This document shows positions 50,569-63,578 of a stretch of 64,000 nucleotides of DNA, one piece after another (position 1 is the stretch's first letter; the number at the start of each line of letters is the position of its first letter). A program made the position numbers and the translations under genes. The stretch is taken from NCBI GenBank assembly GCA_019239895.1, contig JAFAZH010000014.1, positions 1 to 64,000 of the forward strand, read 5' to 3'. Below the pieces are notes generated by a model. That model was given only the letters and a program-made list of their open reading frames with translations, did not search any database and was not told where the DNA came from. The DNA comes from Abditibacteriaceae bacterium. GTDB lineage: Bacteria > Armatimonadota > Abditibacteriia > Abditibacteriales > Abditibacteriaceae.

Positions 50569-50596
50569 CTTGCTTGTGCCACATACGTGGGAACGC
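50569..50596 (-). repeat. Degenerate terminal CRISPR repeat at the trailer end
   Basis: One full period (61 bp) before the first intact repeat, CCACATACGTGGGAAC resembles the repeat core CCACCTACGTGGGGAAC with one substitution and one missing G. Its outer part is unrelated. This decay is expected at the oldest, leader-distal end and agrees with the array reading on the minus strand. Confidence 0.75.
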
Positions 50597-50629
50597 GGCG
50601 TTGCGCCCGTGACGCTTCCTTGGCCTTGG

Positions 50630-53600
50630 GGTTCACCCCCACCTACGTGGGGAACACCACTGCCCGCAAATTCGCGGAGTGGTAATGTTCGGTTCACCCC
50701 CACCTACGTGGGGAACACCGGATGCTATCTGTCGTTAATGGCGTGCTGCCCGGTTCACCCCCACCTACGTGGGGAACACCCGTTGTATTGATCCTCATTT
50801 GCTTGGCCCTGCGGTTCACCCCCACCTACGTGGGGAACACCAGAGCGGGTGTAGAGTAAGACTCTCGGCTGACGGTTCACCCCCACCTACGTGGGGAACA
50901 CGCAATGCTTGTCCTCATGCCGTTGTCAATGCGCGGTTCACCCCCACCTACGTGGGGAACACCTTAGCCCAAGCTGTGACCGCTGCGCCGTAAGCGGTTC
51001 ACCCCCACCTACGTGGGGAACACATCCCGTCTCTCTCATCTTCGCCCACCGCCGTCGGTTCACCCCCACCTACGTGGGGAACACGTTACGATGCGTGGCG
51101 GTGTGCAGCCGGAAAGCGGTTCACCCCCACCTACGTGGGGAACACGACCTGAGCATCGGTGCAGTGGGGCCAATCGCCGGTTCACCCCCACCTACGTGGG
51201 GAACACGATAGACTCGCGCCGATCAAGACCCGTTCATCTGGTTCACCCCCACCTACGTGGGGAACACAAATGGCTTTAATTGCGAACAACGGATTCAATC
51301 GGTTCACCCCCACCTACGTGGGGAACACACCCGCACTCCACGCGCCGCCGCCAATCTGTACGGTTCACCCCCACCTACGTGGGGAACACATTTACCATTT
51401 TGTTCTCTCTCCGTGCTTAATCGGTTCACCCCCACCTACGTGGGGAACACGGATGCTTCTTGTGTTGATGCGCTGGCGGGCGCGGTTCACCCCCACCTAC
51501 GTGGGGAACACCGGATTGAGCTTTCTGACCTCGCGCAATAGGGCGGTTCACCCCCACCTACGTGGGGAACACTGCCGATCATGAATTGCATGACCATCCG
51601 TGGGCGGTTCACCCCCACCTACGTGGGGAACACCGCAAAACCCTCCATCCATCTGGCAAAGCTGTCGGTTCACCCCCACCTACGTGGGGAACACCAGATT
51701 GCGCAGAAAACCGTGCTAACGGGAGCCGGTTCACCCCCACCTACGTGGGGAACACAGCATCTTAAAAGCCAGTTTCTTGGAGAATGGCGGTTCACCCCCA
51801 CCTACGTGGGGAACACGTAAGCAGTGGTTATACGTGCTTCGTCTGACTCGGTTCACCCCCACCTACGTGGGGAACACGAACCTGTTCTTAGTGGGGTAGG
51901 GTTTGATACCGGTTCACCCCCACCTACGTGGGGAACACTCGGGTTGCAGGTCAGGGTTAATGCGCTGTGGCGGTTCACCCCCACCTACGTGGGGAACACT
52001 CGAGGAGAACTTTCTGACTGTGGCGGCGCGGCGGTTCACCCCCACCTACGTGGGGAACACTGGCACCATGACTAATGCGACGGTTCCGGCAGCGGTTCAC
52101 CCCCACCTACGTGGGGAACACGTATCGCTCGCGCTGGCCTTGCCACTTCTGCTCGGTTCACCCCCACCTACGTGGGGAACACGTAGCAGGACTCTTGCGG
52201 GTGCCGCGTCCAATCGGTTCACCCCCACCTACGTGGGGAACACTTCTGTGGCAGGAGTGGCAATATTGCCACTCGCGGTTCACCCCCACCTACGTGGGGA
52301 ACACGGCAGCCATAGCTGCGGCTCCTGCGCTGTCGTCGGTTCACCCCCACCTACGTGGGGAACACTTAGGAGCGTGCTGTATATAGCAGTCACCTTGCGG
52401 TTCACCCCCACCTACGTGGGGAACACGTCAGCAATGTTATCACGCACGACAGCACAACCGGTTCACCCCCACCTACGTGGGGAACACGCAATGGCGCTGC
52501 CTCTGGCTTGCCCTTGCCGCGGTTCACCCCCACCTACGTGGGGAACACCTGCGTCATATCCACGATCACTTCAATGACCGCGGTTCACCCCCACCTACGT
52601 GGGGAACACCGCAGTTGATAACGTGGTGAGGTTAGCGGCCACGGTTCACCCCCACCTACGTGGGGAACACTTGACCCCTAAAGAAGATGGCAAGCCCAAA
52701 ATCGGTTCACCCCCACCTACGTGGGGAACACGTAAATAAAAGCCACATTAGGATACTCTAACCCGGTTCACCCCCACCTACGTGGGGAACACATAGGATG
52801 CCGAACCATCGAAATTCACCACGCCGGTTCACCCCCACCTACGTGGGGAACACACCATCAAGCAGACGCTCAACTCGACCCAGTTGGGTTCACCCCCACC
52901 TACGTGGGGAACACGTGGGGCGGCTAAATATGTCCTTTAGCCATACCGGTTCACCCCCACCTACGTGGGGAACACGGTGAACCAGTAGATTTGCTGAATG
53001 AAGCAGGCGGTTCACCCCCACCTACGTGGGGAACACGATGGCCAATATCCTCGAAGCCGGTGCCGTCGCGGTTCACCCCCACCTACGTGGGGAACACGGA
53101 GAGTTTCGAGCTTGGCGTGGCGTGAGAGCCGGTTCACCCCCACCTACGTGGGGAACACAGCGTCCAACTCATCAGCGACCTGCTTTAGCTCGGTTCACCC
53201 CCACCTACGTGGGGAACACGCTGTCAGCGTCGCATTGCGACCACTAATAGTCGGTTCACCCCCACCTACGTGGGGAACACTCATCGCTCTAAGCCTCCTC
53301 CAGACCCTCTTTCGGTTCACCCCCACCTACGTGGGGAACACGTTATCAATATACTTCTGCACGGTGTTCAAATCGGTTCACCCCCACCTACGTGGGGAAC
53401 ACTGGGCCATCATGTCCGCCGTGGCCTGCTGCTGCGGTTCACCCCCACCTACGTGGGGAACACTTCCTTAACCGCCCGGCGCAACGCCGTGCCTGCGGTT
53501 CACCCCCACCTACGTGGGGAACACTGACGCCTAATCCTCAAGACCCCTGCTCCGTGCGGTTCACCCCCACCTACGTGGGGAACACCCCACTTATCAACGG

Positions 53601-53829
53601 GCTTGGTCTTGCGCACTCGGTTCACCCCCACCTACGTGGGGAACACGCCACGCTGATTGCCGCCGCGCAGAATGGTGACGGTTCACCCCCACCTACGTGG
53701 GGAACACCGGCTGCACCTGCTTGTCGGCAAAGAGATAGCCGGTTCACCCCCACCTACGTGGGGAACACGCAACCGGATGCGGTGCAATGCGCGTCTACGA
53801 CGGTTCACCCCCACCTACGTGGGGAACAC
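50630..53829 (-). CRISPR. Type I-E CRISPR array, 53 repeats and 52 spacers
   Basis: A 28-bp repeat starting GGTTCACCCCCACCTACG and ending TGGGGAACAC recurs at exactly 61-bp steps, from 50630 to 53802. I find 53 copies by position and 52 spacers, all 33 bp (or 32 bp with a 29-bp repeat, because 50 of 53 repeats are preceded by C). Read on the minus strand the repeat is GTGTTCCCCACG..GTGAACCG, the classical I-E form with a CCCCAC/GTGGGG stem and an 8-nt crRNA handle GUGAACCG. The leader is therefore at the high-coordinate side, near the cas genes. No internal repeat variation was noticed. cas3 to cas1 follow on the opposite strand. Confidence 0.98.
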
Positions 53830-54096: not shown

Positions 54097-55068
54097 ATGT
54101 GTGGGCGAGGACAATTGGAGCGCATCATGAGCATGGATCGCAAGATTCGGGCTGGCGAGTATCCCAACGCCCACAGCATCGCGGAGGAGTTCGACCTCAA
54201 GCCCCGCGTCATTTATGATGATCGTGCCTTTATGAAGAACCGCTTGAGAGCACCTATCGCCTATGACCGTAAGCGACATGGTTGGTATTACACCGATACC
54301 GCTTGGGTCTTGCCGTCAGCATTTGTCACGCAGGGCGAGATGCTGGCTTTTTTTCTGAGTGTCGAGGTGGCCCGCCGTTACCTGGGCACGGCCCTCGAAG
54401 CGCCGCTGAAATCTGCTGTGCAGAAAATCACCCAGGGCTTGGAGAGTCGGGTCGAGGTGGACTTGGACTCACTGCGCCAACATTATACGTTTGCCGCGCC
54501 GCCCTCGCTCAAGGTAGACGAAAGGATTTTGGCGATGCTCGATGGGGCGATTCAAACCCAGCGTCAGGTGCGGATGCGCTATTTCACGGCAGCGCGTGGT
54601 GAGCACACCGAACGCACCGTAGACCCTCACCACTTGAGAAATGTCGGCGGCGACTGGTATCTCCTGGCCTTCGATGATGCCAGCCGCCAGATGCGTACCT
54701 TCCATGTCGGGCGCATTGAGGAGTGGCAGCAACTGGACACAGGCTTTACCTTCCAGCCGGATTTCGATGTCGAAGCGTGGCGGCAAACCGCGTTTCAGGC
54801 CGAGGCGACCGCCGAGCAAACCGATGTCGTGGTGCGCTTCGATGCTTACCAGGCTCGCTACATCCGCGAGCGCCACTGGCACGACAGCCAGCAGATCGAA
54901 GAACTGCCGGATGGCGGCCTCCTCCTGCGCCTGCACACCGGCGGATTAGGCCAGGTGCAACGGTGGGTGATGCAGTATGGCAACCACGCCGAAGTCTTGG
55001 AGCCGCCAGAGTTACGCGCCGCCGTGCAAAACGAAGTGCGCGGGATGAGGGAACGATATGACCAGTAA
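54097..55068 (+). CDS. WYL-domain transcriptional regulator
   Basis: The 323-residue protein has an N-terminal winged HTH (ERIMSMDRKIRAGEYPNAHS then IAEEFDLKPRVIYDDRAFM, DeoR/HTH_11-like), a central WYL domain with MRYFTAARGEHTERTVDPHH and LRNVGGDWYLLAFDDASRQM (the W-Y-L triad), and a C-terminal WCX extension from about residue 235. WYL proteins near CRISPR loci bind nucleic acids or nucleotides and control cas expression or defence. Here the gene lies between the array leader, which fires in the other direction, and the cas operon. A strong AAGGAG and TATAAT support the start. Whether it activates or represses the locus cannot be told. Confidence 0.9.
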   Translation: MCGRGQLERIMSMDRKIRAGEYPNAHSIAEEFDLKPRVIYDDRAFMKNRLRAPIAYDRKRHGWYYTDTAWVLPSAFVTQGEMLAFFLSVEVARRYLGTALEAPLKSAVQKITQGLESRVEVDLDSLRQHYTFAAPPSLKVDERILAMLDGAIQTQRQVRMRYFTAARGEHTERTVDPHHLRNVGGDWYLLAFDDASRQMRTFHVGRIEEWQQLDTGFTFQPDFDVEAWRQTAFQAEATAEQTDVVVRFDAYQARYIRERHWHDSQQIEELPDGGLLLRLHTGGLGQVQRWVMQYGNHAEVLEPPELRAAVQNEVRGMRERYDQ

Positions 55069-55072
55069 GACA

Positions 55073-55162
55073 ATTTGCGCCCCCACTAGTGTAGGGAAGG
55101 TGATCCCGGTATTATCCAGTCTCATCCATAAATCGGTTCACACCCACTTACGTGAGTCTATA
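55073..55162 (-). ncRNA. crRNA-like regulatory RNA (CreA/CreR-like): pseudo-repeat, spacer, pseudo-repeat
   Basis: On the minus strand a degenerate repeat (55162-55134) ends in the intact handle GTGAACCG, then comes a 32-nt spacer-like sequence starting ATTTATGGATGAGACTG, then a second degenerate repeat (55101-55073). The two repeats are exactly 61 bp apart, as in the array, and match it at about 19 and 16 of 28 positions. Each keeps a hairpin with G-T pairs: CTCAC/GTGGG and CCCTAC/GTGGGG. The first repeat has lost its 5' part, where TATATA may be a -10 box; the second has lost its 3' handle. This is what processing by Cas6e into one crRNA requires. The spacer pairs partly with 55252-55283. 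Transcription itself is inferred. Confidence 0.75.
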
Positions 55163-55251
55163 TAGAGTTTACAATTGTTGCGCAGAAAGGTCATTGGGGA
55201 TAGTGGACAAAGTTCAGGATACTCAGGGCCTTGAATCTTTGTAAGCTTTGT

Positions 55252-55286
55252 GTTGAGATGAGAGATCAGTCACATCCTTAAATCTT
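55252..55286 (-). promoter_or_regulatory. Partial protospacer with AAG PAM targeted by the crRNA-like RNA
   Basis: On the minus strand, AAG (55286-55284) is followed by ATTTAAGGATGTGACTG (55283-55267). The spacer of the RNA at 55073-55162 reads ATTTATGGATGAGACTG, identical except at positions 6 and 12, which are flipped out and unread in type I-E Cascade. Beyond position 17 there is no match, so Cascade could bind but Cas3 cleavage should not be licensed. The site abuts the AGGAGG of the gene at 55300; binding would block its transcription and probably that of cas3. A weak promoter (TTGAAT at 55231, TGAGAT at 55254) overlaps it. Confidence 0.75.
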
Positions 55287-55299
55287 AGGAGGATCAGTT

Positions 55300-55488
55300 A
55301 TGACCCGTAATTCCGTTCGCGCAACTGTGTTTGGTTTAATGGCCCAGAGTAGGCACTATGAGTATGACGAGGACAGCTTGATTCGAGATACGCGGCGTGA
55401 GCATCCAAAGGCACTCCAGAGTACAATTCTGCGTTACCGCAACGACTACAAGCAATGCAGGGGTAGCCACAAGCTTATTTGTAGATGA
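55300..55488 (+). CDS. 62-residue protein between the Cascade target site and cas3
   Basis: AGGAGG at 55287-55292 sits 7 bp before the ATG, the strongest ribosome binding site in the locus. The peptide reads MTRNSVRATVFGLMAQSRHY, then EYDEDSLIRDTRREHPKALQ and a tail STILRYRNDYKQCRGSHKLI. It is charged, probably helical, without a signal peptide or membrane helix. It is the first gene after the crRNA-like target, so repression by Cascade would silence it. It may be a small toxin kept silent by CreA-type RNA, a cas-operon leader protein, or an adaptor; no family is recognised. It is 83 bp before cas3 with a hairpin between. Confidence 0.6.
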   Translation: MTRNSVRATVFGLMAQSRHYEYDEDSLIRDTRREHPKALQSTILRYRNDYKQCRGSHKLICR

Positions 55489-55502
55489 ACTCACCGTAGC
55501 TT

Positions 55503-55543
55503 AAGTTGCTACCTACACCAGCCAAAGCGACAGGTAGCAACTT
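55503..55543. terminator. Strong hairpin between the 62-codon gene and cas3
   Basis: AAGTTGCTACCT (55503-55514) and AGGTAGCAACTT (55532-55543) form a perfect 12-bp stem with a 17-nt loop. The following sequence GAGCTGTATTTC has only a weak T content, so it may attenuate, or protect the 5' end of the cas3 message, rather than fully terminate. It lies 29 bp upstream of the cas3 ATG. Confidence 0.6.
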
Positions 55544-55571
55544 GAGCTGTATTTCTCGTGTAAGGATTGAA

Positions 55572-58289
55572 ATGACGAGCATCGCTTATAAATTATGGGC
55601 CAAATCTGATCCTTATCATCCTCTCTGGTGCCACTTATTGGATGTGGCTGCTGTCGCCAAAGCTCTCCTACCACGCTTTGGGCCGCTGGAGGAGATGCCA
55701 ACGGAATGGGCTTGCTACTTATGTGCTTTGCACGATATTGGCAAGGCTGACCCCTGGTTTCAAAACAAAGACGCCACGTTAGCTGAAGCCTTGGCACAGT
55801 TGGGGTTGAAGTTGCCGGAGCGGTTGGATACGACTTCATCGTCCATGCTACGTTTTCGGCATGAGGCGCGTTCGCAGGGGTGGCTGCTGGATTATCTGCC
55901 AGCACAGCACGGTTGGGGCAAGAGTGCCGCGCGCGTCGCGGTTCATGCCATTAACGGGCATCACGGCAACTTTGGGGCCGATTGCTACAAAGAGTCTGAC
56001 TGGCCTGTTCAATACGCCACTTGGAATCCCATGCGGGAACAACTGGCGCAACTGGTCTGGGACGCGCTACAACCACCGCCTTATGCGCCGCAAAAGTTCG
56101 ATCATGCGGGCGCGTTGGGCGTCACGCTGTCCGGGCTAATTATCCTCGCTGATTGGATTGCTTCCAATGACTCGGTTTACCCTTACTCCGACTTGCATGG
56201 GCACGACGATCCCAAAGCCTATTTTGCAGCCGCGCAAGCGCAGGCGCGGGCAGTTGTGCATAAGATGAAGCTGGACACGCCAGCCGCGCGGCAGCTTGCG
56301 CCGCAGCCACGCTTTGGCGATGTGTGGCCCGACTTAGCCGACTCGCCGCGCCCCTCGCAGAGCGCGCTTGAAAGCGAAGTATTGGCGGGGCGCGCAATGC
56401 CCGGCTTAGCTATCATCGAAGCGCAAATGGGGGAAGGCAAAACTGAAGGCGCGATTTACCTAAGCGAGTGCTGGAACGCTCAACGCGGTGTGCAGGGTAT
56501 TTATTTTGGACTGCCAACCCAGGCCACCAGCAACCAGATGCATGGGCGTTATGCCAAGTATTTGCGGGTGCGTCGTCCTGGCGCGTCGCCCCGCCTCGTG
56601 CATGGCATGGCGTGGCTCGTGGACGATGTAGCGCCCGCCACCACAGCGCAAACTTATGGCGATACGGAAGACCGTCTCCTGTCCCGCGAATGGTTTCGCC
56701 CGTTGCGGCGCGCTCTGCTGGCCCCGGATGGCGTGGGCACCATAGACCAGGCGTTGCTGGCCGCGTTGCACGTCAAGTTTGGGACGCTGCGCCTGTTGGG
56801 GTTGCGCGCCAAAGTCTTAGTGATAGATGAGGCGCACGCCTATGACCAATACATGACAACCATTTTGGAACAGCTTTTGAAATGGTGCCGCGCCTTGGAA
56901 ATCCCCGTCATTTTGCTATCCGCCACGCTCTCCGCACAACAGAAGGAAAGACTCGTGGGCGCTTATGGTGGCGATGTTAAAGCTCTCGCCGCCAGCGCCG
57001 AAGCCGACTATCCGCTCTTGACTTTTGTCGCGTTGGACGGCACGCCGCGCACCGTGCCTATCCAGCGCGATCCCAGCCAGGCGCGCGAACTCGGTCTCAA
57101 GCTCCATTACGGCCTATTAGACGATACGGCGCAGATTGCGCGGCAGGCATTAGAGCGTGTTGCGGATGGGGGTTGCGCTTGCCTCTTGATGAACACGGTC
57201 AAGGGCGCACAACAAGTCTATGAGGCTATCGCAGACCTCCTGAAAACTAATGAATTTGCGGCCCCAGATGTGGTGGCCTTGTTGCACGCGCGGTTTCGGG
57301 CGCAACGGCGGCAGGAAATCGAAAAGCGTGTCACCGCCCTCTTCGGCAAAGACGCCACGGTAGACAATGGCCAACGACCCCGCCGCGCTATCCTGGTGGC
57401 CACGCAGGTGGTCGAGCAATCATTGGACGTGGATTTTGACTTTTTCTTGACCCAAATTGCGCCTGTGGATTTGCTATTGCAACGCAGCGGACGCCTCTGG
57501 CGGCACCACAAACACGATGCGGCTCGTCCCGCCTTAGATGCTGGCCCTGTCCTGGAAGTCTTGTTGCCCGCAGCAGCGAGTTTGAAGTTTGGCGTGAGTG
57601 AAAAAATCTATGCGCGTGTGGTGCTGCTCCGCACCCTGGCCGCGCTGCATGGCCGCACTGTACTTCATCTGCCAGATCAATTTCGCCCGCTCATTGAAGC
57701 GGTCTATGGCGAAGCCATACCAGAAAGCGAAATCGTGCCCCGGTCAGAGATCGAAGCCGCCGCCCATGCCTGGCAAACGGAGCAAGCTGCGGCCCGCACC
57801 GCAGCCAATGTGAATCTTTTGCCAGACCCACATCCGCGCGAGTTTCACTTCGTGGGACGCGACAAGGCCGAGGCCGAGGAGGGCGCGGCCAAAGACTATC
57901 TCCGCATCAGCACGCGCCTGGGCGATGACTCGCGCGCCGCGCTTGTCTTGAGCGATAAACGCCTGATCGCCCTGGCGCGCTCGTCAGCGGATGAAAATAA
58001 GGGCCACAAGTTGAAACCACCGCCCCGTCGTCGCTTGCGCCGCCTGTTCAACCACAAGGTCAATCTGCCCAAGTGGTGGCTGCAAGCAGCCGAACCCGCC
58101 ACCGGCTTCGAGCCGTTTTTTGAGGGCCAGAACTGGCTGCGCGGCCATATCATAGTGCCGTTGCGCGGTGGCGAATGGCAGGCCGCCAACGGCGCAGTCA
58201 TCCGTGACGACGCTAAGCTCGGACTGACCTACACCCCTGCTGCCATAGCAGATAAAGGAGAAGAAGCCGATGCCGGAATTATTGGATGA
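55572..58289 (+). CDS. cas3: CRISPR-associated nuclease/helicase Cas3 (type I-E)
   Basis: Cas3 is recruited to Cascade-bound DNA, nicks the displaced strand and degrades it. The 905-residue protein has an N-terminal HD nuclease (PLWCHLLDVAAVAKALL, CALHDIGKADPWFQ, then HGWGK and GHHGNFG), followed by a superfamily 2 helicase: Walker A AQMGEGKTEGAIYL (about residue 285), DEAH box VLVIDEAHAYDQYMT (about 417), LLSATLSAQQKE, and QVVEQSLDVDFDFFLTQIAP with LLQRSGRLWRH. All catalytic motifs are intact. An earlier TTG lies inside the upstream hairpin, so the ATG at 55572 with TAAGGA upstream is used. Its 3' end overlaps cse1 by 20 bp. Confidence 0.96.
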   Translation: MTSIAYKLWAKSDPYHPLWCHLLDVAAVAKALLPRFGPLEEMPTEWACYLCALHDIGKADPWFQNKDATLAEALAQLGLKLPERLDTTSSSMLRFRHEARSQGWLLDYLPAQHGWGKSAARVAVHAINGHHGNFGADCYKESDWPVQYATWNPMREQLAQLVWDALQPPPYAPQKFDHAGALGVTLSGLIILADWIASNDSVYPYSDLHGHDDPKAYFAAAQAQARAVVHKMKLDTPAARQLAPQPRFGDVWPDLADSPRPSQSALESEVLAGRAMPGLAIIEAQMGEGKTEGAIYLSECWNAQRGVQGIYFGLPTQATSNQMHGRYAKYLRVRRPGASPRLVHGMAWLVDDVAPATTAQTYGDTEDRLLSREWFRPLRRALLAPDGVGTIDQALLAALHVKFGTLRLLGLRAKVLVIDEAHAYDQYMTTILEQLLKWCRALEIPVILLSATLSAQQKERLVGAYGGDVKALAASAEADYPLLTFVALDGTPRTVPIQRDPSQARELGLKLHYGLLDDTAQIARQALERVADGGCACLLMNTVKGAQQVYEAIADLLKTNEFAAPDVVALLHARFRAQRRQEIEKRVTALFGKDATVDNGQRPRRAILVATQVVEQSLDVDFDFFLTQIAPVDLLLQRSGRLWRHHKHDAARPALDAGPVLEVLLPAAASLKFGVSEKIYARVVLLRTLAALHGRTVLHLPDQFRPLIEAVYGEAIPESEIVPRSEIEAAAHAWQTEQAAARTAANVNLLPDPHPREFHFVGRDKAEAEEGAAKDYLRISTRLGDDSRAALVLSDKRLIALARSSADENKGHKLKPPPRRRLRRLFNHKVNLPKWWLQAAEPATGFEPFFEGQNWLRGHIIVPLRGGEWQAANGAVIRDDAKLGLTYTPAAIADKGEEADAGIIG

Positions 58290-59907
58290 AGTTGCCACGC
58301 CTGCCATGCCGACTCAACAAGAACCTCGCTTTGATGTCGCTTATGAGCCGTGGCTGCCTCTCGTGCGCGAGAATGGAGATGTGGAGGAAGCCGGGCTTAT
58401 TGAAACCCTCTGCCAAGCGCACGAGATACAAGCGATTCGTGACCCGATGCCGCCCGTCGAGTGTGGTTTAGTGCGCCTGTTGGTTGCCTTTGCCTTAGAT
58501 ATTTTTGAACCGGATGGCGCGGCAGATTGGGAAGAGGTCTGGGAGATGGGCCGCTTTGACGAGGCGCGGGTGCGGGCCTACTTCGACAAGTATGCGGATC
58601 GTTTCAACTTGTTCGACGAGGTGCATCCTTTCTTGCAAGATGCCGCTGCGGGTGGCGATGATAAGCCCCTCGCGGGCTTATTGCCGTCGCAACCAGCGGG
58701 CACTAATGCGGCGCATTTTCAGCATGGGGTCGAGGCGGATTTCGCGGTAGCGCCCGCGCTGGCGGCGCGGCTGCTGGCGACGATTGCCCCCTTTATGACG
58801 GCGGGTGGGGCGGGGCTGTCGCCCTCCATTAACGGCGCACCGCCTTGGTATGTGCTACTGCAAGGCGCTAATTTGTTTGAGACTATCTGGCTCAACTGCC
58901 TGGTGCTGGCCGACCTGCGGCCCAAAGTGCAAGCAGATGTTCCAGCCTGGCGCGATGATCGCCCGCTGCTCAAGACAGATCGCACCGAAGCCGGATTGTT
59001 AGAAGCCTTAACGTGGCGTCCGCGGCGCATTCGCCTCGTGCCGCACTTGGCTCCCCAAGGCAATGGGCGCTGCGCTTTGAGCGGACAGGAAACGCCGGTT
59101 CTGGTGGGGCGCATGAAGTTTGCCGCTGCCTGGAGTACGCGCTTTGAATGGCGCGACCCCAACGTGCCGCGTCGCGTCTCCACTGAAGGCGCGATTGTGT
59201 TGCGCCCCCGTGAAGGACGCGAAGTGTGGCGTGATGTTGGCGCGCTCGCCCTCCTCCGCCATAGCGAGCGCGGGGGCAGTGAGCGGCCCAGCATCGTCTC
59301 GCAATTCGCGTCACTCATTGAGCAGCAATATTTGCCGGAAGATACGCCACTCCGCCTGGCGCTGTATGGGATGCGCACGGACATGAAAATGAAAGTTTTC
59401 GAGTGGCACCGTGAAATGCTCCGATTGCCCGCACCCCTCTTATGGCAACAGCAGTTTCAAAGCCAGGCGACGGATGCCATAAAACTGGCCGACGATGTTG
59501 CTTATGCCCTGGGACGCGCTATCAAACACACTTATCCACGCGACGGCGCGGGCAACGACAAGGCTTTCGAGCCGCTCATCGCGCGGGCGCAAAGCCAGTT
59601 CTGGCGGCGTTTGCGTCCCTACTACACTGATACTCCAGATTCGCTATTATATCGTCTTGCGCCTCTTCATCCAGAGCGTGACGGCGCACAAATTCAGGCC
59701 GCTATTCAAGAGTGGCACAAGGCGATGCGACAAGTGGCGCAACGCGCGTTAGACCAGGCCATTGGTGAACTGGATACTGACGGCGCGGCCATGAAACGCC
59801 AGATGGAAGCACGCAGCCAGTTTGCGGGGCGATTATGGGCACTCTTGAATCCCGAAGCTGCCGCAACCGCCAAAGAAAAGAAGAAAAAGGAGTCCAAGCA
59901 TGAATGA
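58270..59907 (+). CDS. cse1: Type I-E Cascade large subunit Cse1 (Cas8e)
   Basis: Recognises the PAM and recruits Cas3. The 545-residue product begins ATPAMPTQQEPRFDVAYEPW, followed by DVEEAGLIETLCQAHEIQAI and LVRLLVAFALDIFEPDG, then a FNLFDEVHPFLQDAA block typical of Cse1, and ISTNA-like helical C-terminal four-helix bundle (DAIKLADDVAYALGRAIKH). ATG at 58270 follows GGAGAAG and overlaps the cas3 end by 20 bp, so translation is coupled. The length is close to E. coli CasA (502). Confidence 0.95.
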   Translation: MPELLDEVATPAMPTQQEPRFDVAYEPWLPLVRENGDVEEAGLIETLCQAHEIQAIRDPMPPVECGLVRLLVAFALDIFEPDGAADWEEVWEMGRFDEARVRAYFDKYADRFNLFDEVHPFLQDAAAGGDDKPLAGLLPSQPAGTNAAHFQHGVEADFAVAPALAARLLATIAPFMTAGGAGLSPSINGAPPWYVLLQGANLFETIWLNCLVLADLRPKVQADVPAWRDDRPLLKTDRTEAGLLEALTWRPRRIRLVPHLAPQGNGRCALSGQETPVLVGRMKFAAAWSTRFEWRDPNVPRRVSTEGAIVLRPREGREVWRDVGALALLRHSERGGSERPSIVSQFASLIEQQYLPEDTPLRLALYGMRTDMKMKVFEWHREMLRLPAPLLWQQQFQSQATDAIKLADDVAYALGRAIKHTYPRDGAGNDKAFEPLIARAQSQFWRRLRPYYTDTPDSLLYRLAPLHPERDGAQIQAAIQEWHKAMRQVAQRALDQAIGELDTDGAAMKRQMEARSQFAGRLWALLNPEAAATAKEKKKKESKHE

Positions 59908-60631
59908 GGCAACAGTAGCCGCCGTTGCGCCGCAACCGGCAACAGCCGTCATTGAAGATGCCGCTGGCGAGAGTAGAGCCAGCGACAAGTCGCAGCAATT
60001 TCCTAAACACGACACGCTGAAAATTAAAGACTGGTGGGAGGCGTTGGCTCAGGCCCGTCAATTCGTGTGGAAGTTAGAGGATTTGCGCGACCCGAAAGTA
60101 GCAAGTTTGCGTGGCATCAACCGAGGCAAGTTGGCGGCGTTAAGGCGTAACGCCGGGGCCACAACAGGGACATCACGCGGTGTGGCATGGGTTGCGGATT
60201 GGCTGCATGAGGTGCCTGTAGGTCAGCACGAACAATTTTTTCTAATTGCTACTCTTTTCGATCTCAATCGTAAGCCGCCCATTATGAGAGATTTCGGCGA
60301 GACGATGCGGCGCGTCAAGGAGAATGCCAGCGACTCGTTTGAGCGACGCTTCCTCGTGTTGCTCGACGCGCAATTTGACCTTATCTATGATGCGCTCGAC
60401 GGCACGAGGAGCGGGGGTGGTGAACTGACTTATCGCTTAGACCAGATGGTGAAACTGGCCGCGTCCAAAGAAGTCGGCGTCAACTGGCCGGTGCTGTTAG
60501 CCGACCTCTGTTGCTGGGAGTTGCCCGGCAAACCGGTGCAGAAAAAATGGGCGCGCAATTTCTACGCGCCCCGTTTAGCGCCAGATGACGACCTATCTGC
60601 TGTGTCATTGCTTAGTAGCGACCCCGCTTAA
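59900..60631 (+). CDS. cse2: Type I-E Cascade small subunit Cse2 (Cas11e)
   Basis: Two copies form the belly of Cascade and stabilise the R-loop. The 243-residue product has an N-terminal low-complexity Ala-rich extension, then LKIKDWWEALAQARQFVWKL and LRGINRGKLAALRRNAGATT, the basic segment that binds DNA in Cse2, and a helical body including DSFERRFLVLLDAQ. It is longer than E. coli CasB (160) mainly through the N-terminus. It starts 8 bp inside cse1, indicating coupling. An 87-bp gap follows before cas7, the largest in the operon. Confidence 0.92.
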   Translation: MNEATVAAVAPQPATAVIEDAAGESRASDKSQQFPKHDTLKIKDWWEALAQARQFVWKLEDLRDPKVASLRGINRGKLAALRRNAGATTGTSRGVAWVADWLHEVPVGQHEQFFLIATLFDLNRKPPIMRDFGETMRRVKENASDSFERRFLVLLDAQFDLIYDALDGTRSGGGELTYRLDQMVKLAASKEVGVNWPVLLADLCCWELPGKPVQKKWARNFYAPRLAPDDDLSAVSLLSSDPA

Positions 60632-60718
60632 CCCCTAAGTTTTCAGGCTCAACCAGAAAATTGTTCGCAAATTCAACCAGATGCTCTAGTCTGGTCTACA
60701 GAAGAGGAGACTCAGTTT

Positions 60719-61927
60719 ATGTTGATTGAAATTCATGTTTTACAAAACCACGCGCCCAGCAACCTCAACCGCGATGAGTCTGGCAGCCCCAAGGAGTGCA
60801 TGTTTGGTGGCCACAAGCGTGCCCGCATTTCGAGCCAGTGTCTCAAGCGCAGCATCCGCCGTTCCGCTCTGTTTCAGCAGGAATTAGAAGGGCATCTCGC
60901 CACGCGCACGCGCCGCTTGCCTGAGCTGATGCGCGAGCGTTTCCTGGCCGAAGGCTTCGATGCGGAGATGGCCGAAGTCGCCGCGCAAAAGGCCAGTGGC
61001 TTTGGCACCAATGAAGGCAAAGAGCAAAAGCCCAAAGACGGCAAATACCCCACCGCGCAGACCATGTTTCTCACATCCTATGACATTGCAGCGGTTGCCA
61101 CTGTCCTGCTCAATGCGGCGCGTGAAGCAGGCACCGCCAAGAAGTTCGCGGCGCTCAAAGCCGCCGACTTGCAAGCCCTCGCGCAGCAAAAGGGCTTTCG
61201 CCAGACGACCGTAGACATTGCCCTCTTTGGCCGCATGACAACCTCTGCTGCCTTCCGCGATGTGGAAGCTGCCATGCAAGTCGCTCATGCGCTTTCAACC
61301 CACAAAGTGGATCACGAATTTGATTATTTTACCGCCGTGGACGACTTGAAAAACACGGCGGAAGAGGCGGCGGAAGAGGACGCAGGCGCGGATATGTTAG
61401 GTGATGTGGAATACAACTCCGCCTGTTACTACAAGTATTTCTCCCTGGATGTGGATGGCCTCATCGCCAATCTGACAGGGGCTAGCGCGCGGCGCAAAGA
61501 CATCCTTGACTCTGAAAAGCAGGAAGCCCGTGAACTGACGGGGCGCACCGTGGACACCTTTCTGCGCGCCATGACCCTGACCACGCCAACGGGCAAGCAG
61601 AACTCGTTCGCCGCGCACCAGTTACCCGCTGCTATTCTCGTGGAAGTGCGGCCCTATGCGGCTCCCGTATCCTATGCCAATGCCTTTGTTGATCCGGCGC
61701 GGCCTGGACGCGACGGCGACCTCGTGCAAGCCTCCCTCAAAAAACTTGGCACCCACGTCGAGGCGCTTACTACTGGCTTCAATCTGCCCAGTGCTGCGCG
61801 TTTCCTGCTCGCGCCAGAACACAAGGAGTTTCAAATTGATGGTGTGACGCGAGTCGCCAGCCTGAACGAATTATGCCAGCAACTCCACGCGACGGTTGAA
61901 GGAGGCAATGGAGGCGGCAATGGCTAA
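60719..61927 (+). CDS. cas7: Type I-E Cascade backbone subunit Cas7 (Cse4)
   Basis: Six copies wrap the crRNA spacer. The 402-residue product begins IEIHVLQNHAPSNLNRDESG and HKRARISSQCLKRSIRRSAL, the RRM and thumb residues that flip every sixth base of crRNA-DNA pairs, and later has AHALSTHKVDHEFDYFTAVD and TVDTFLRAMTLTTPTGKQNS. It is full length. An AGAGGAGA ribosome binding site precedes it in an 87-bp spacer containing a short AT-rich segment; an internal promoter or processing site is possible. Its stop overlaps cas5. Confidence 0.96.
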   Translation: MLIEIHVLQNHAPSNLNRDESGSPKECMFGGHKRARISSQCLKRSIRRSALFQQELEGHLATRTRRLPELMRERFLAEGFDAEMAEVAAQKASGFGTNEGKEQKPKDGKYPTAQTMFLTSYDIAAVATVLLNAAREAGTAKKFAALKAADLQALAQQKGFRQTTVDIALFGRMTTSAAFRDVEAAMQVAHALSTHKVDHEFDYFTAVDDLKNTAEEAAEEDAGADMLGDVEYNSACYYKYFSLDVDGLIANLTGASARRKDILDSEKQEARELTGRTVDTFLRAMTLTTPTGKQNSFAAHQLPAAILVEVRPYAAPVSYANAFVDPARPGRDGDLVQASLKKLGTHVEALTTGFNLPSAARFLLAPEHKEFQIDGVTRVASLNELCQQLHATVEGGNGGGNG

Positions 61928-62681
61928 ACCCATTCTTCTGCTGCGCCTGGAAGGGCCGTTGCAAGCGTGGGGGGTGCGTTCGCGCTGGGATGTGCGCGAC
62001 ACCGGTACAGAGCCAACCAAATCGGGCATCATCGGCTTGCTCGGTTGCGCCCTCGGCTACCCTATGCACGACCCCCGCCTGGAAAGCGAATTAAACGCGG
62101 GCTTGCGCTTTGGCGTGCGCGTGGAGCATCCCGGCACGGTGACGGTGGACTATCAGACGATCACCGATTACCTGCCCACTGCGGCGGGCCAATATAAGAG
62201 TCGCGGCGGCGTCAAGTCGTGGGACGCGATCCAGCGCGAAGGTGACTTGCCCGCCACAATTATCTCGCCACGCGCCTATCTCGAAGATGCAGCGTTCCTC
62301 GTGGCCTTAGAGGAGCGCCCCGCATTTTATGGATTGGTGGCACGCTGCGCCCAAGCTCTGCAAGCCCCGCAGTGGCCGCTCTTTCTGGGACGTAAAGCCT
62401 GCATTCCGACCCGCCCCATCTTTGAAGGCTGTGTCACCACTTATGATGGGCTGGAAGACGCTCTGGCCCAACACCCGTGGGAATGGCTGGGCGCGTGTCA
62501 CGGGCGACGCAAATATAAACCCGCCGATCTGGTGGCCTATATCGAAGACGAGACGGGCGACCTGCTGCGCCAGGACGCCATCCGCATCAATGCGGCCCGT
62601 ACCTATGATTTTCGACCGGTGCGCCGCGCATCTTTCAAACCTGTGCCGCCGCCCGACCCGGTAGCGCCTGTGGAGGCATAA
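61920..62681 (+). CDS. cas5: Type I-E Cascade subunit Cas5
   Basis: Cas5 holds the crRNA 5' handle. The 253-residue product starts MAKPILLLRLEGPLQAWGVR followed by SRWDVRDTGTEPTKSGIIGL, the RAMP-fold opening of Cas5e, and continues with KSRGGVKSWDAIQREGDL and the C-terminal FDRP-like region RTYDFRPVRRASFKP. Two earlier ATGs are in frame, but the ATG at 61920 gives the conserved N-terminus and has GGAGG upstream. It overlaps cas7 by 8 bp and cas6e by 1 bp. Confidence 0.95.
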   Translation: MAKPILLLRLEGPLQAWGVRSRWDVRDTGTEPTKSGIIGLLGCALGYPMHDPRLESELNAGLRFGVRVEHPGTVTVDYQTITDYLPTAAGQYKSRGGVKSWDAIQREGDLPATIISPRAYLEDAAFLVALEERPAFYGLVARCAQALQAPQWPLFLGRKACIPTRPIFEGCVTTYDGLEDALAQHPWEWLGACHGRRKYKPADLVAYIEDETGDLLRQDAIRINAARTYDFRPVRRASFKPVPPPDPVAPVEA

Positions 62682-63400
62682 TGCTCTATATTTCACAACT
62701 GATTCTCAACCCGCGTTCGCGCCAGGTGCAGGCGGAGTTGCGTGACCCTTATCAGATGCACCGCACGCTCGCCAAGGCGTTTGGTGATGGGCCGGGCGAG
62801 TGGGAGGCGGCGCGGTGCTTGTTTCGGGTGGATCAGCGGCCCATTGCCATTGCCCGCGAGATGGAAGCGCCGCACCTGTTAGTGCAGTCCCTGGCGCTGC
62901 CCCACTGGGAGCGTCTTACCGTAGCGGGGGACTATCTCATTGGCGTGCCGGAAATACGCGAATCGAATCCGCAGTTTCGGGCCGGGCAGCGACTCGCTTT
63001 CCGCTTGCGCTGCAATCCTACCGTCAAGCGCAACGGCAAGCGGGTGGGCCTGTACCAAGAAGAGGAGCGCCGCGCCTGGCTGAATCGCAAGGCGCAGGAG
63101 AATGGCTTTCGCGTGCTTCATGCGGTGCTGCGCGAAGCAGGGCCGCAACCCCTGGGCGAAATCTGGCGCGACCCTGGCCCCACTGCCGATGATAGGGAGC
63201 CGCTTCAATTTCGAGTGCCGCTTAAAGGCGGGGATCGCATTGACTCCACGCGGGTACCCAACCGAGCCGCCTTTAGCGCCGCGCAATTTGATGGCGGCCT
63301 CACGATCCTCGATCCGGCAGTCTTCAAAGACGCACTGTGTGCTGGCATTGGCTCCGGCAAAGCCTTTGGCTTTGGTCTCTTGTCGCTGGCCCGCGCTTAA
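62681..63400 (+). CDS. cas6e: CRISPR repeat endonuclease Cas6e (Cse3)
   Basis: Cleaves the pre-crRNA hairpin and stays bound to the 3' hairpin. The 239-residue product has LYISQLILNPRSRQVQAELR and DPYQMHRTLAKAFGD, with the Tyr and His (about residues 24-27) corresponding to the catalytic pair of Cas6e, and the C-terminal glycine-rich loop GIGSGKAFGFGLLSLA. A basic stretch RCNPTVKRNGKRVGLYQ fits RNA contact. Its start shares the A of the cas5 stop. Cleavage after the stem would produce the 8-nt handle GUGAACCG seen in the array. Confidence 0.95.
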   Translation: MLYISQLILNPRSRQVQAELRDPYQMHRTLAKAFGDGPGEWEAARCLFRVDQRPIAIAREMEAPHLLVQSLALPHWERLTVAGDYLIGVPEIRESNPQFRAGQRLAFRLRCNPTVKRNGKRVGLYQEEERRAWLNRKAQENGFRVLHAVLREAGPQPLGEIWRDPGPTADDREPLQFRVPLKGGDRIDSTRVPNRAAFSAAQFDGGLTILDPAVFKDALCAGIGSGKAFGFGLLSLARA

Positions 63401-63578
63401 CCTAACGCTGGATACAGCGGTCTGCCGTATGGCAGACTCTGTCCCTCAAACACTGGGTTAAGTTCCTCACCCTACCTTATCTTGCTTGCCTCGCTGAGCG
63501 GCGTGCGACGAATCACGCCGCCTGGCCAAACGTGTTCAATTTGTTGTCTCTTAGAGAGAATCACTCACGGAGGTGCTT
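63401..63578. other. Spacer with hairpin between cas6e and cas1
   Basis: GTCTGCC-GTAT-GGCAGAC forms a short stem at 63420-63437, and CTTAACC near 63396 can pair with GGTTAAG near 63456. No T-run follows, so this is a pause or processing site at best. GGAGGTG at 63569-63575 is the cas1 ribosome binding site. The gap of 178 bp suggests that cas1 (and cas2 beyond) may have its own promoter. Confidence 0.5.

What the first reader, a model, noticed from the sequence alone, without database searches (positions are those of the whole stretch)
55073..55162. Pseudo-repeats have decayed asymmetrically, keeping only parts needed for crRNA maturation
The first pseudo-repeat keeps the exact 3' handle GTGAACCG and a stem CTCAC/GTGGG but has lost its 5' third. 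The second keeps the stem CCCTAC/GTGGGG but has lost the handle. Substitutions in the stems (C to T) still allow G-T pairs. Neutral decay of an abandoned array would not spare precisely the Cas6e substrate hairpins and the crRNA 5' handle. TATATA at 55164-55159 overlaps the lost part and could be the -10 element.
Basis: partly seen in the sequence, partly recalled or inferred. Interest (0 to 1): 0.8.

Follow-up and report, generated by a model that had tools for sequence, protein, structure and literature searches.

The report
A CRISPR guide that represses CRISPR
Two worn-out CRISPR repeats next to a bacterial CRISPR system flank a guide sequence that matches the control region just upstream of that system's own genes, so this is most likely a built-in guide RNA that lets the defence machinery turn itself down.

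Summary
In detail: minus-strand pseudo-repeats at 55162-55134 and 55101-55073 keep the crRNA 5' handle (first copy only) and both Cas6e hairpins, and flank a 32-nt pseudo-spacer in exact array register. It agrees at 15 of 15 non-flipped positions of the first 17 and differs at 6, 12 and 18. It is the only such site in the 6.65-Mb genome, directly upstream of a 62-aa orphan ORF and the complete type I-E cas operon. Of 50 type I-E pieces, six (this one included) carry a comparable guide-target pair; 0.1 expected by chance. This is a CreR/CreA-type guide: Cascade, guided by it, most likely represses the ORF62-cas transcript. The asymmetric decay is the published signature of such elements (PMC8501985, PMC9458426), and CreR is already reported for type I-E (PMC13131331): a new member of a known kind. 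The TATATA -10 idea fails, because the start it implies would cut off the hairpin arm. Whether ORF62 is a regulator, a toxin or a leader ORF stays open.

The parts
55134..55162 (-). first pseudo-repeat; 5' handle 55141-55134, hairpin arms 55157-55152 and 55147-55142
   Evidence: 20 of 29 matches to the array repeat, handle 8 of 8, 6 of 6 stem pairs with one double (compensatory) change
55102..55133 (-). 32-nt pseudo-spacer = guide
   Evidence: same length as array spacers; 15 of 15 non-flipped positions of its first 17 match the site at 55283-55267
55073..55101 (-). second pseudo-repeat; hairpin kept (3' handle of the mature RNA), crRNA handle lost
   Evidence: 16 of 29 matches, handle 3 of 8, 6 of 6 scored pairs
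55252..55283 (-). protospacer (matched part 55267-55283)
   Evidence: only 2 places in the 6.65-Mb genome fit ATTTANGGATGNGACTG: guide and this site
55284..55286 (-). AAG motif where a type I-E PAM is expected
   Evidence: AAG at 5 of 6 pairs. That AAG is a type I-E PAM is recalled, not tested here
55300..55488 (+). ORF62, 62-aa orphan ORF with AGGAGG at 55287-55292
   Evidence: no hit in Pfam, NCBIfam, PHROGs, PADLOC, PDB, phages, plasmids or the other 290 phylum genomes; codon usage only weakly coding-like
55498..55548 (+). long stem-loop between ORF62 and cas3
   Evidence: 17-bp stem, z -5.0 against shuffles, no T-run terminator found
55572..63400 (+). cas3, cse1, cse2, cas7, cas5, cas6e (cas1 follows at 63573)
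   Evidence: Pfam and NCBIfam hits
54097..55068 (+). WYL/WCX-domain regulator, converging on the guide gene
   Evidence: Pfam WYL and WCX; PADLOC 'WYL' CRISPR-associated models
50629..53829 (-). main CRISPR array, 53 repeats

Best explanation
The element is a CreR-type (crRNA-like, Cas-regulating) guide gene. Its minus-strand transcript is cut by Cas6e at the two preserved hairpins, giving an RNA with the normal 5' handle, a 32-nt guide and a 3' hairpin. Cascade carrying it binds 55283-55252 by the AAG motif and a pairing limited to about the first 17 positions, which is enough to hold the DNA but too short for destruction by Cas3. Bound there, directly upstream of the ribosome-binding site of ORF62 and about 290 bp upstream of cas3, it represses the ORF62-cas transcript, so Cascade limits its own supply and repression lifts when Cascade is titrated by crRNAs or blocked by anti-CRISPRs. 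Shown by sequence: repeats, register, hairpins, guide-target match, flanking motif, uniqueness, recurrence in relatives. Inferred: transcription, processing, binding, repression, and that cas genes rather than ORF62 alone are the purpose.
For: Guide-target match 15 of 15 at non-flipped positions 1-17 with AAG; 0 of 3000 shuffled guides reach 15 in the local region, and 0 of 3000 in the whole window, where the highest value was 14, reached twice. Unique in the genome. No match beyond chance after position 17 (18 of 32 in all). 12 of 12 scored stem pairs kept, one by a double change, P=0.0001. Recurrence: 50 type I-E pieces scanned, 105 hairpin-plus-handle candidates, 6 with a target score of 13 or more (window, G121, G144, G190, G002, G215); 20 shuffles give a mean of 0.1. 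In 4 of the 6 the target lies upstream of the Cascade genes, directly (G190) or with a short ORF first (window, G002, G215). Position 6 is mismatched in 6 of 6 and position 12 in 5 of 6, although the scan ignored both. In G190 the guide has the sense of the target gene, so pairing with its mRNA is excluded there. CreR is reported for types I-B, I-E and V-A by partial promoter complementarity (PMC13131331, passage); seed positions 1-5 and 7-11 suffice in creA (PMC8501985, passages).
Against: No expression, processing or binding data. No good promoter found for either the guide or the target operon. The minimum-energy fold of the 106-nt precursor opens the first hairpin and pairs part of it with the start of the guide. 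ORF62 and a strong stem-loop lie between target and cas3, so an effect on cas genes is not assured. The relative scan required a handle of at least 6 of 8 and at least 5 of 6 pairs, so hairpin and handle retention in the five relatives is partly selected for; only the target match there is independent. 44 of 50 pieces gave no such pair, some being short contigs; G022 has a two-repeat mini-array but only a 10 of 15 target by hand count.
Confidence: 0.72

Rival explanations
1. CreTA/CrePA-type module: the guide is the antitoxin and ORF62 (or its RNA) a toxin, so the cell is addicted to Cascade.
For: ORF62 is an orphan with a strong ribosome-binding site and a downstream stem-loop, like haloarchaeal creT with its SD (H. 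hispanica), mini-ORF and stem-loop (PMC8501985 Discussion). Two relatives (G144, G121) carry a guide behind an HNH or HNH-looking ORF that it targets.
Against: ORF62 has no toxin-family match; the guide gene lies upstream on the opposite strand, not behind the ORF as in G144 and G121; in G215 the short ORF overlaps the cse1 start and in G002 it directly precedes cse1, as expected of an operon member.
Confidence: 0.15
2. Relic of an abandoned mini-array or self-targeting spacer decaying neutrally.
For: Repeats are degenerate; 9 and 13 of 29 positions changed.
Against: Pairs kept beyond random decay (P=0.0001); 15 of 15 target match with mismatches only at 6, 12 and 18 within the first 18; no leader-like sequence upstream (alignment to both array leaders no better than shuffles; the two leaders do not resemble each other either); the pattern recurs with other sequences in relatives. 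By contrast the decaying array end of G002 (L030) keeps its 5' repeat ends and loses stem pairs.
Confidence: 0.05
3. Plain antisense RNA: the guide pairs with the ORF62 mRNA leader next to its ribosome-binding site, without Cascade.
For: The guide is complementary to the ORF62 leader at 55267-55283, three bases from AGGAGG.
Against: Mismatches at 6 and 12 and the AAG motif have no place in this reading; in G190 the guide has the same sense as the gene.
Confidence: 0.05
4. Racr-like decoy repeat from a mobile element that jams Cas6e and Cas7.
For: Repeat mimics are known (PMC10651486, abstract and passages).
Against: Racrs are solitary repeat units in viral genomes not associated with cas genes; here are two repeats, a guide with a target, inside a cas locus; guide absent from viral contigs.
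Confidence: 0.02

Closest known systems
CreR (Cas-regulating RNA), type I and V-A
   Same: Degenerate repeat-guide-repeat beside the cas genes; partial complementarity with a flanking motif upstream of the cas operon; reported for I-B, I-E and V-A (PMC13131331, passage).
   Different: Here a short orphan ORF and a stem-loop stand between target and cas3; hairpin-type Cas6e substrates with a compensatory change; no experiment.
CreTA / creA antitoxin (types I-B, I-F)
   Same: Two divergently degenerated repeats: first keeps the handle, second keeps the upstream part (PMC8501985, PMC9458426); seed match at 1-5 and 7-11 with a PAM.
   Different: No recognisable toxin; guide gene divergent from the target gene; match extends to position 17; hairpins conserved, whereas haloarchaeal repeats show none (PMC9458426).
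CrePA
   Same: crRNA-like guide represses a neighbouring gene through Cascade (PMC12737573, section 3.3).
   Different: CreP typically has a KilA-N domain; ORF62 matches no Pfam family.
Racr
   Same: Repeat mimicry outside arrays (PMC10651486).
   Different: Solitary, mobile-element borne, no target.

Membership tests
CreR | degenerate repeat-guide-repeat unit within a cas locus | tested here: met
CreR | 5' handle kept in first repeat; second repeat keeps its hairpin | tested here: met
   8 of 8 and 6 of 6 pairs
CreR | seed complementarity with flanking PAM | tested here: met
   15 of 15 non-flipped positions, AAG; PAM of this system itself not determined
CreR | target is the promoter of the cas operon | tested here: inconclusive
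   site is upstream of ORF62 and cas3 but no promoter could be placed
CreR | Cas6-processed RNA loaded on Cascade; repression without DNA cleavage | not testable with these tools
   needs RNA sequencing and reporter assays
CreTA / CrePA | target gene is toxic when Cascade is lost | not testable with these tools
   no toxin-family match for ORF62, which does not decide it
CreTA / CrePA | degenerate two-repeat guide matching the gene's upstream region | tested here: met
Racr | solitary repeat unit on a mobile element, no cas genes | tested here: not met
   two repeats in a complete I-E locus
ordinary CRISPR mini-array | near-identical repeats and a leader | tested here: not met
   20 and 16 of 29 matches; upstream region unlike both array leaders

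The most novel reading that the evidence does not exclude
A hybrid of CreR and CreTA: one guide represses a single transcript that starts with a toxic or regulatory short ORF and continues into cas3 and Cascade, so that loss or blocking of Cascade releases both fresh Cascade and the short protein. The recurrence of unrelated-looking short ORFs between guide target and Cascade (window, G002, G215) would then be a family of CRISPR-gated leader genes, with HNH-like forms (G144, G121) as free-standing cousins.
Probability: 0.15. Interest if true: 0.7.

Novelty: new member of a known kind. Interest (0 to 1): 0.48.

Why it matters
It gives a clear guide-target pair for CRISPR self-regulation in a type I-E system of a little-studied phylum (relatives are recorded as Armatimonadota and Abditibacterium), with five further pairs of differing sequence in related loci. 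Since guide and target differ from genome to genome while the match stays, the set lets one test what pairing length separates repression from destruction; three of the six guides are only 20-21 nt long.

Tried and rejected
Small ORFs as one family: ORF62 against the G002 ORF gives a local score reached by 60 of 1000 shuffles, other pairs worse; a search among all ORFs of the pieces finds no significant relative. Resemblance by eye is not evidence.

Fold of ORF62 alone: pLDDT 52, pTM 0.21; not searched further.

Single-sequence scans for relatives of Cas3 (genome contigs) and Cse1 (viral contigs) found nothing; ORF62 and the guide are absent from viral contigs.

Scans with a repeat profile missed pairs with altered stems, and one search also returned array reverse strands; replaced by the structure-based scan. 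In one search the best of three shuffles scored 13.5; one search required a second hairpin as well and used 20 shuffles, made by shuffling adjacent two-letter blocks, not a full dinucleotide shuffle. One shuffled hit in the 20 reached at least 14.

TATATA as -10: rejected, see interpretation. Of 77 loci I scanned 5 (L082, L083, L085, L088, L092), chosen by hand; of the rest, some repeat pieces already held and most are weak matches outside type I-E.

Full report
Check. The window holds a type I-E system: WYL/WCX regulator, then cas3, cse1, cse2, cas7, cas5, cas6e and the start of cas1. A 53-repeat array lies on the minus strand at 50629-53829. Between the regulator and cas3, on the minus strand, stand two pseudo-repeats in the array's 61-nt register with a 32-nt pseudo-spacer. 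The described features are all present. The handle argument is weaker for this locus alone (P=0.03 for the first copy, 0.22 for the second).

What it is. Read as a guide, the pseudo-spacer finds a site 150 bp away on the same strand, 55283-55252, next to AAG. Positions 1-5, 7-11 and 13-17 all agree; 6, 12 and 18 do not; beyond that agreement is at chance level. 0 of 3000 shuffled guides did as well within 55163-55572, nor in the whole window (highest 14, twice). The 17-nt pattern occurs in the genome only at the guide and at this site. Every sixth base of the guide is flipped out in Cascade (recalled), and creA guides of haloarchaea need 1-5 and 7-11 but not 6 or 12 (PMC8501985, passages). The match is therefore of the kind Cascade uses.

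Relatives. 42 of 291 phylum genomes, the own one included, have a Cse1 match. I scanned all of these loci, as 45 pieces, plus 5 loci from a wider search: 50 pieces, 688,879 bases. 105 places had a handle-bearing hairpin followed by a second hairpin at 17-35 nt. Six had a target score of 13 or more within 700 bp: window 15 (AAG), G121 15 (AAG), G144 14 (AAG), G190 14 (AAG), G002 13 (AAG), G215 13 (ATG). Twenty shuffles averaged 0.1 such hits and 0.35 at 12 or more. No other real candidate exceeds 12. The guides differ from one another, so guide and target have changed together, or the pairs arose independently. Position 6 is mismatched in all six and position 12 in five, though the scan did not look at them: this speaks against recently captured self-spacers. 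It does not by itself speak against chance, which the shuffles address.

Two arrangements. In the window, G002 and G215 the guide gene runs opposite to the cas genes and its target lies 150-159 bp upstream of the guide, before a short ORF that leads into cas3 (window) or cse1 (G002, G215; in G215 the ORF stop overlaps the cse1 start, behind a TTGACA-17-TATAAT sequence read by eye). In G190 the guide runs with the genes and its target lies just before the cse1 promoter-like region. In G144 and G121 the guide follows an ORF and targets the region before it; the G144 ORF is HNH (Pfam E=3.4e-6, over the cut-off), the G121 one looks HNH-like by eye only and has no Pfam hit. The G002 system belongs to the same family as the window's genome: there the regulator directly adjoins cas3, and guide and short ORF sit between cas3 and cse1 instead.

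Mechanism. Cas6e cuts both hairpins; Cascade with this guide binds upstream of ORF62 and blocks transcription; pairing that stops near position 17 should not license Cas3. As Cascade is a product of the operon, this is negative feedback that crRNAs and anti-CRISPRs relieve, as described for CreR (PMC12737573, section 3.2 passages). All steps after the sequence match are inferred. Against: no convincing promoter, an alternative fold of the precursor that hides part of the guide, and the unexplained ORF62 and stem-loop between target and cas3. ORF62 shows weak coding signal (codon score above 87 percent of shuffles, GC3 0.55 against 0.61-0.71 in neighbours).

Known or new. The asymmetric decay is in print: PMC8501985 (Discussion read) states that the last 8 nt of the first repeat and the first 22 nt of the second are the parts more like the repeat, and PMC9458426 (two sections read) gives a similar picture for haloarchaea. 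One difference: there the first repeat is the more diverged overall, here the second is (16 against 20 of 29). CreR in type I-E is stated in PMC13131331 (one passage read). The survey of Shmakov et al. 2023 was seen only as a reference in PMC10651486 and was not held; the original CreR paper was not read. I found no report for Armatimonadota in one search listing 8 of 791 papers, so that proves little.

Noticed in passing
L065 17768-18200 (G144) and L066 13232-13640 (G121): CreTA-like modules in type I-E loci: an HNH or HNH-looking short ORF followed by a two-repeat guide with a 20-21 nt guide part that matches the region upstream of the ORF; in G121 it sits next to cas1.
   Followed up: partly
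L056 2900-3380 (G215): Guide gene, promoter-like TTGACA-17-TATAAT, target and a 73-aa ORF overlapping the cse1 start.
   Followed up: partly
L018 12708-12797 minus (G022): Two-repeat mini-array between cas3 and cse1 beside a 70-aa ORF with a weak DUF6364 hit, below its cut-off; best nearby target only 10 of 15 (hand count).
   Followed up: partly
L038 944-1280 (own contig about 64943-65280): Second array downstream of the window with a different repeat loop (GTATTCCCCACAGGCGTGGGGGTGAACCG); the second pseudo-repeat is as close to it (17 of 29) as to the main repeat (16 of 29).
   Followed up: no
55498-55548: 17-bp stem-loop between ORF62 and cas3, z -5.0, without a T-run; possible attenuator or processing site.
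   Followed up: no
50575-50600: Fragment resembling half a repeat (ACATACGTGGGAAC) beyond the far end of the main array.
   Followed up: no
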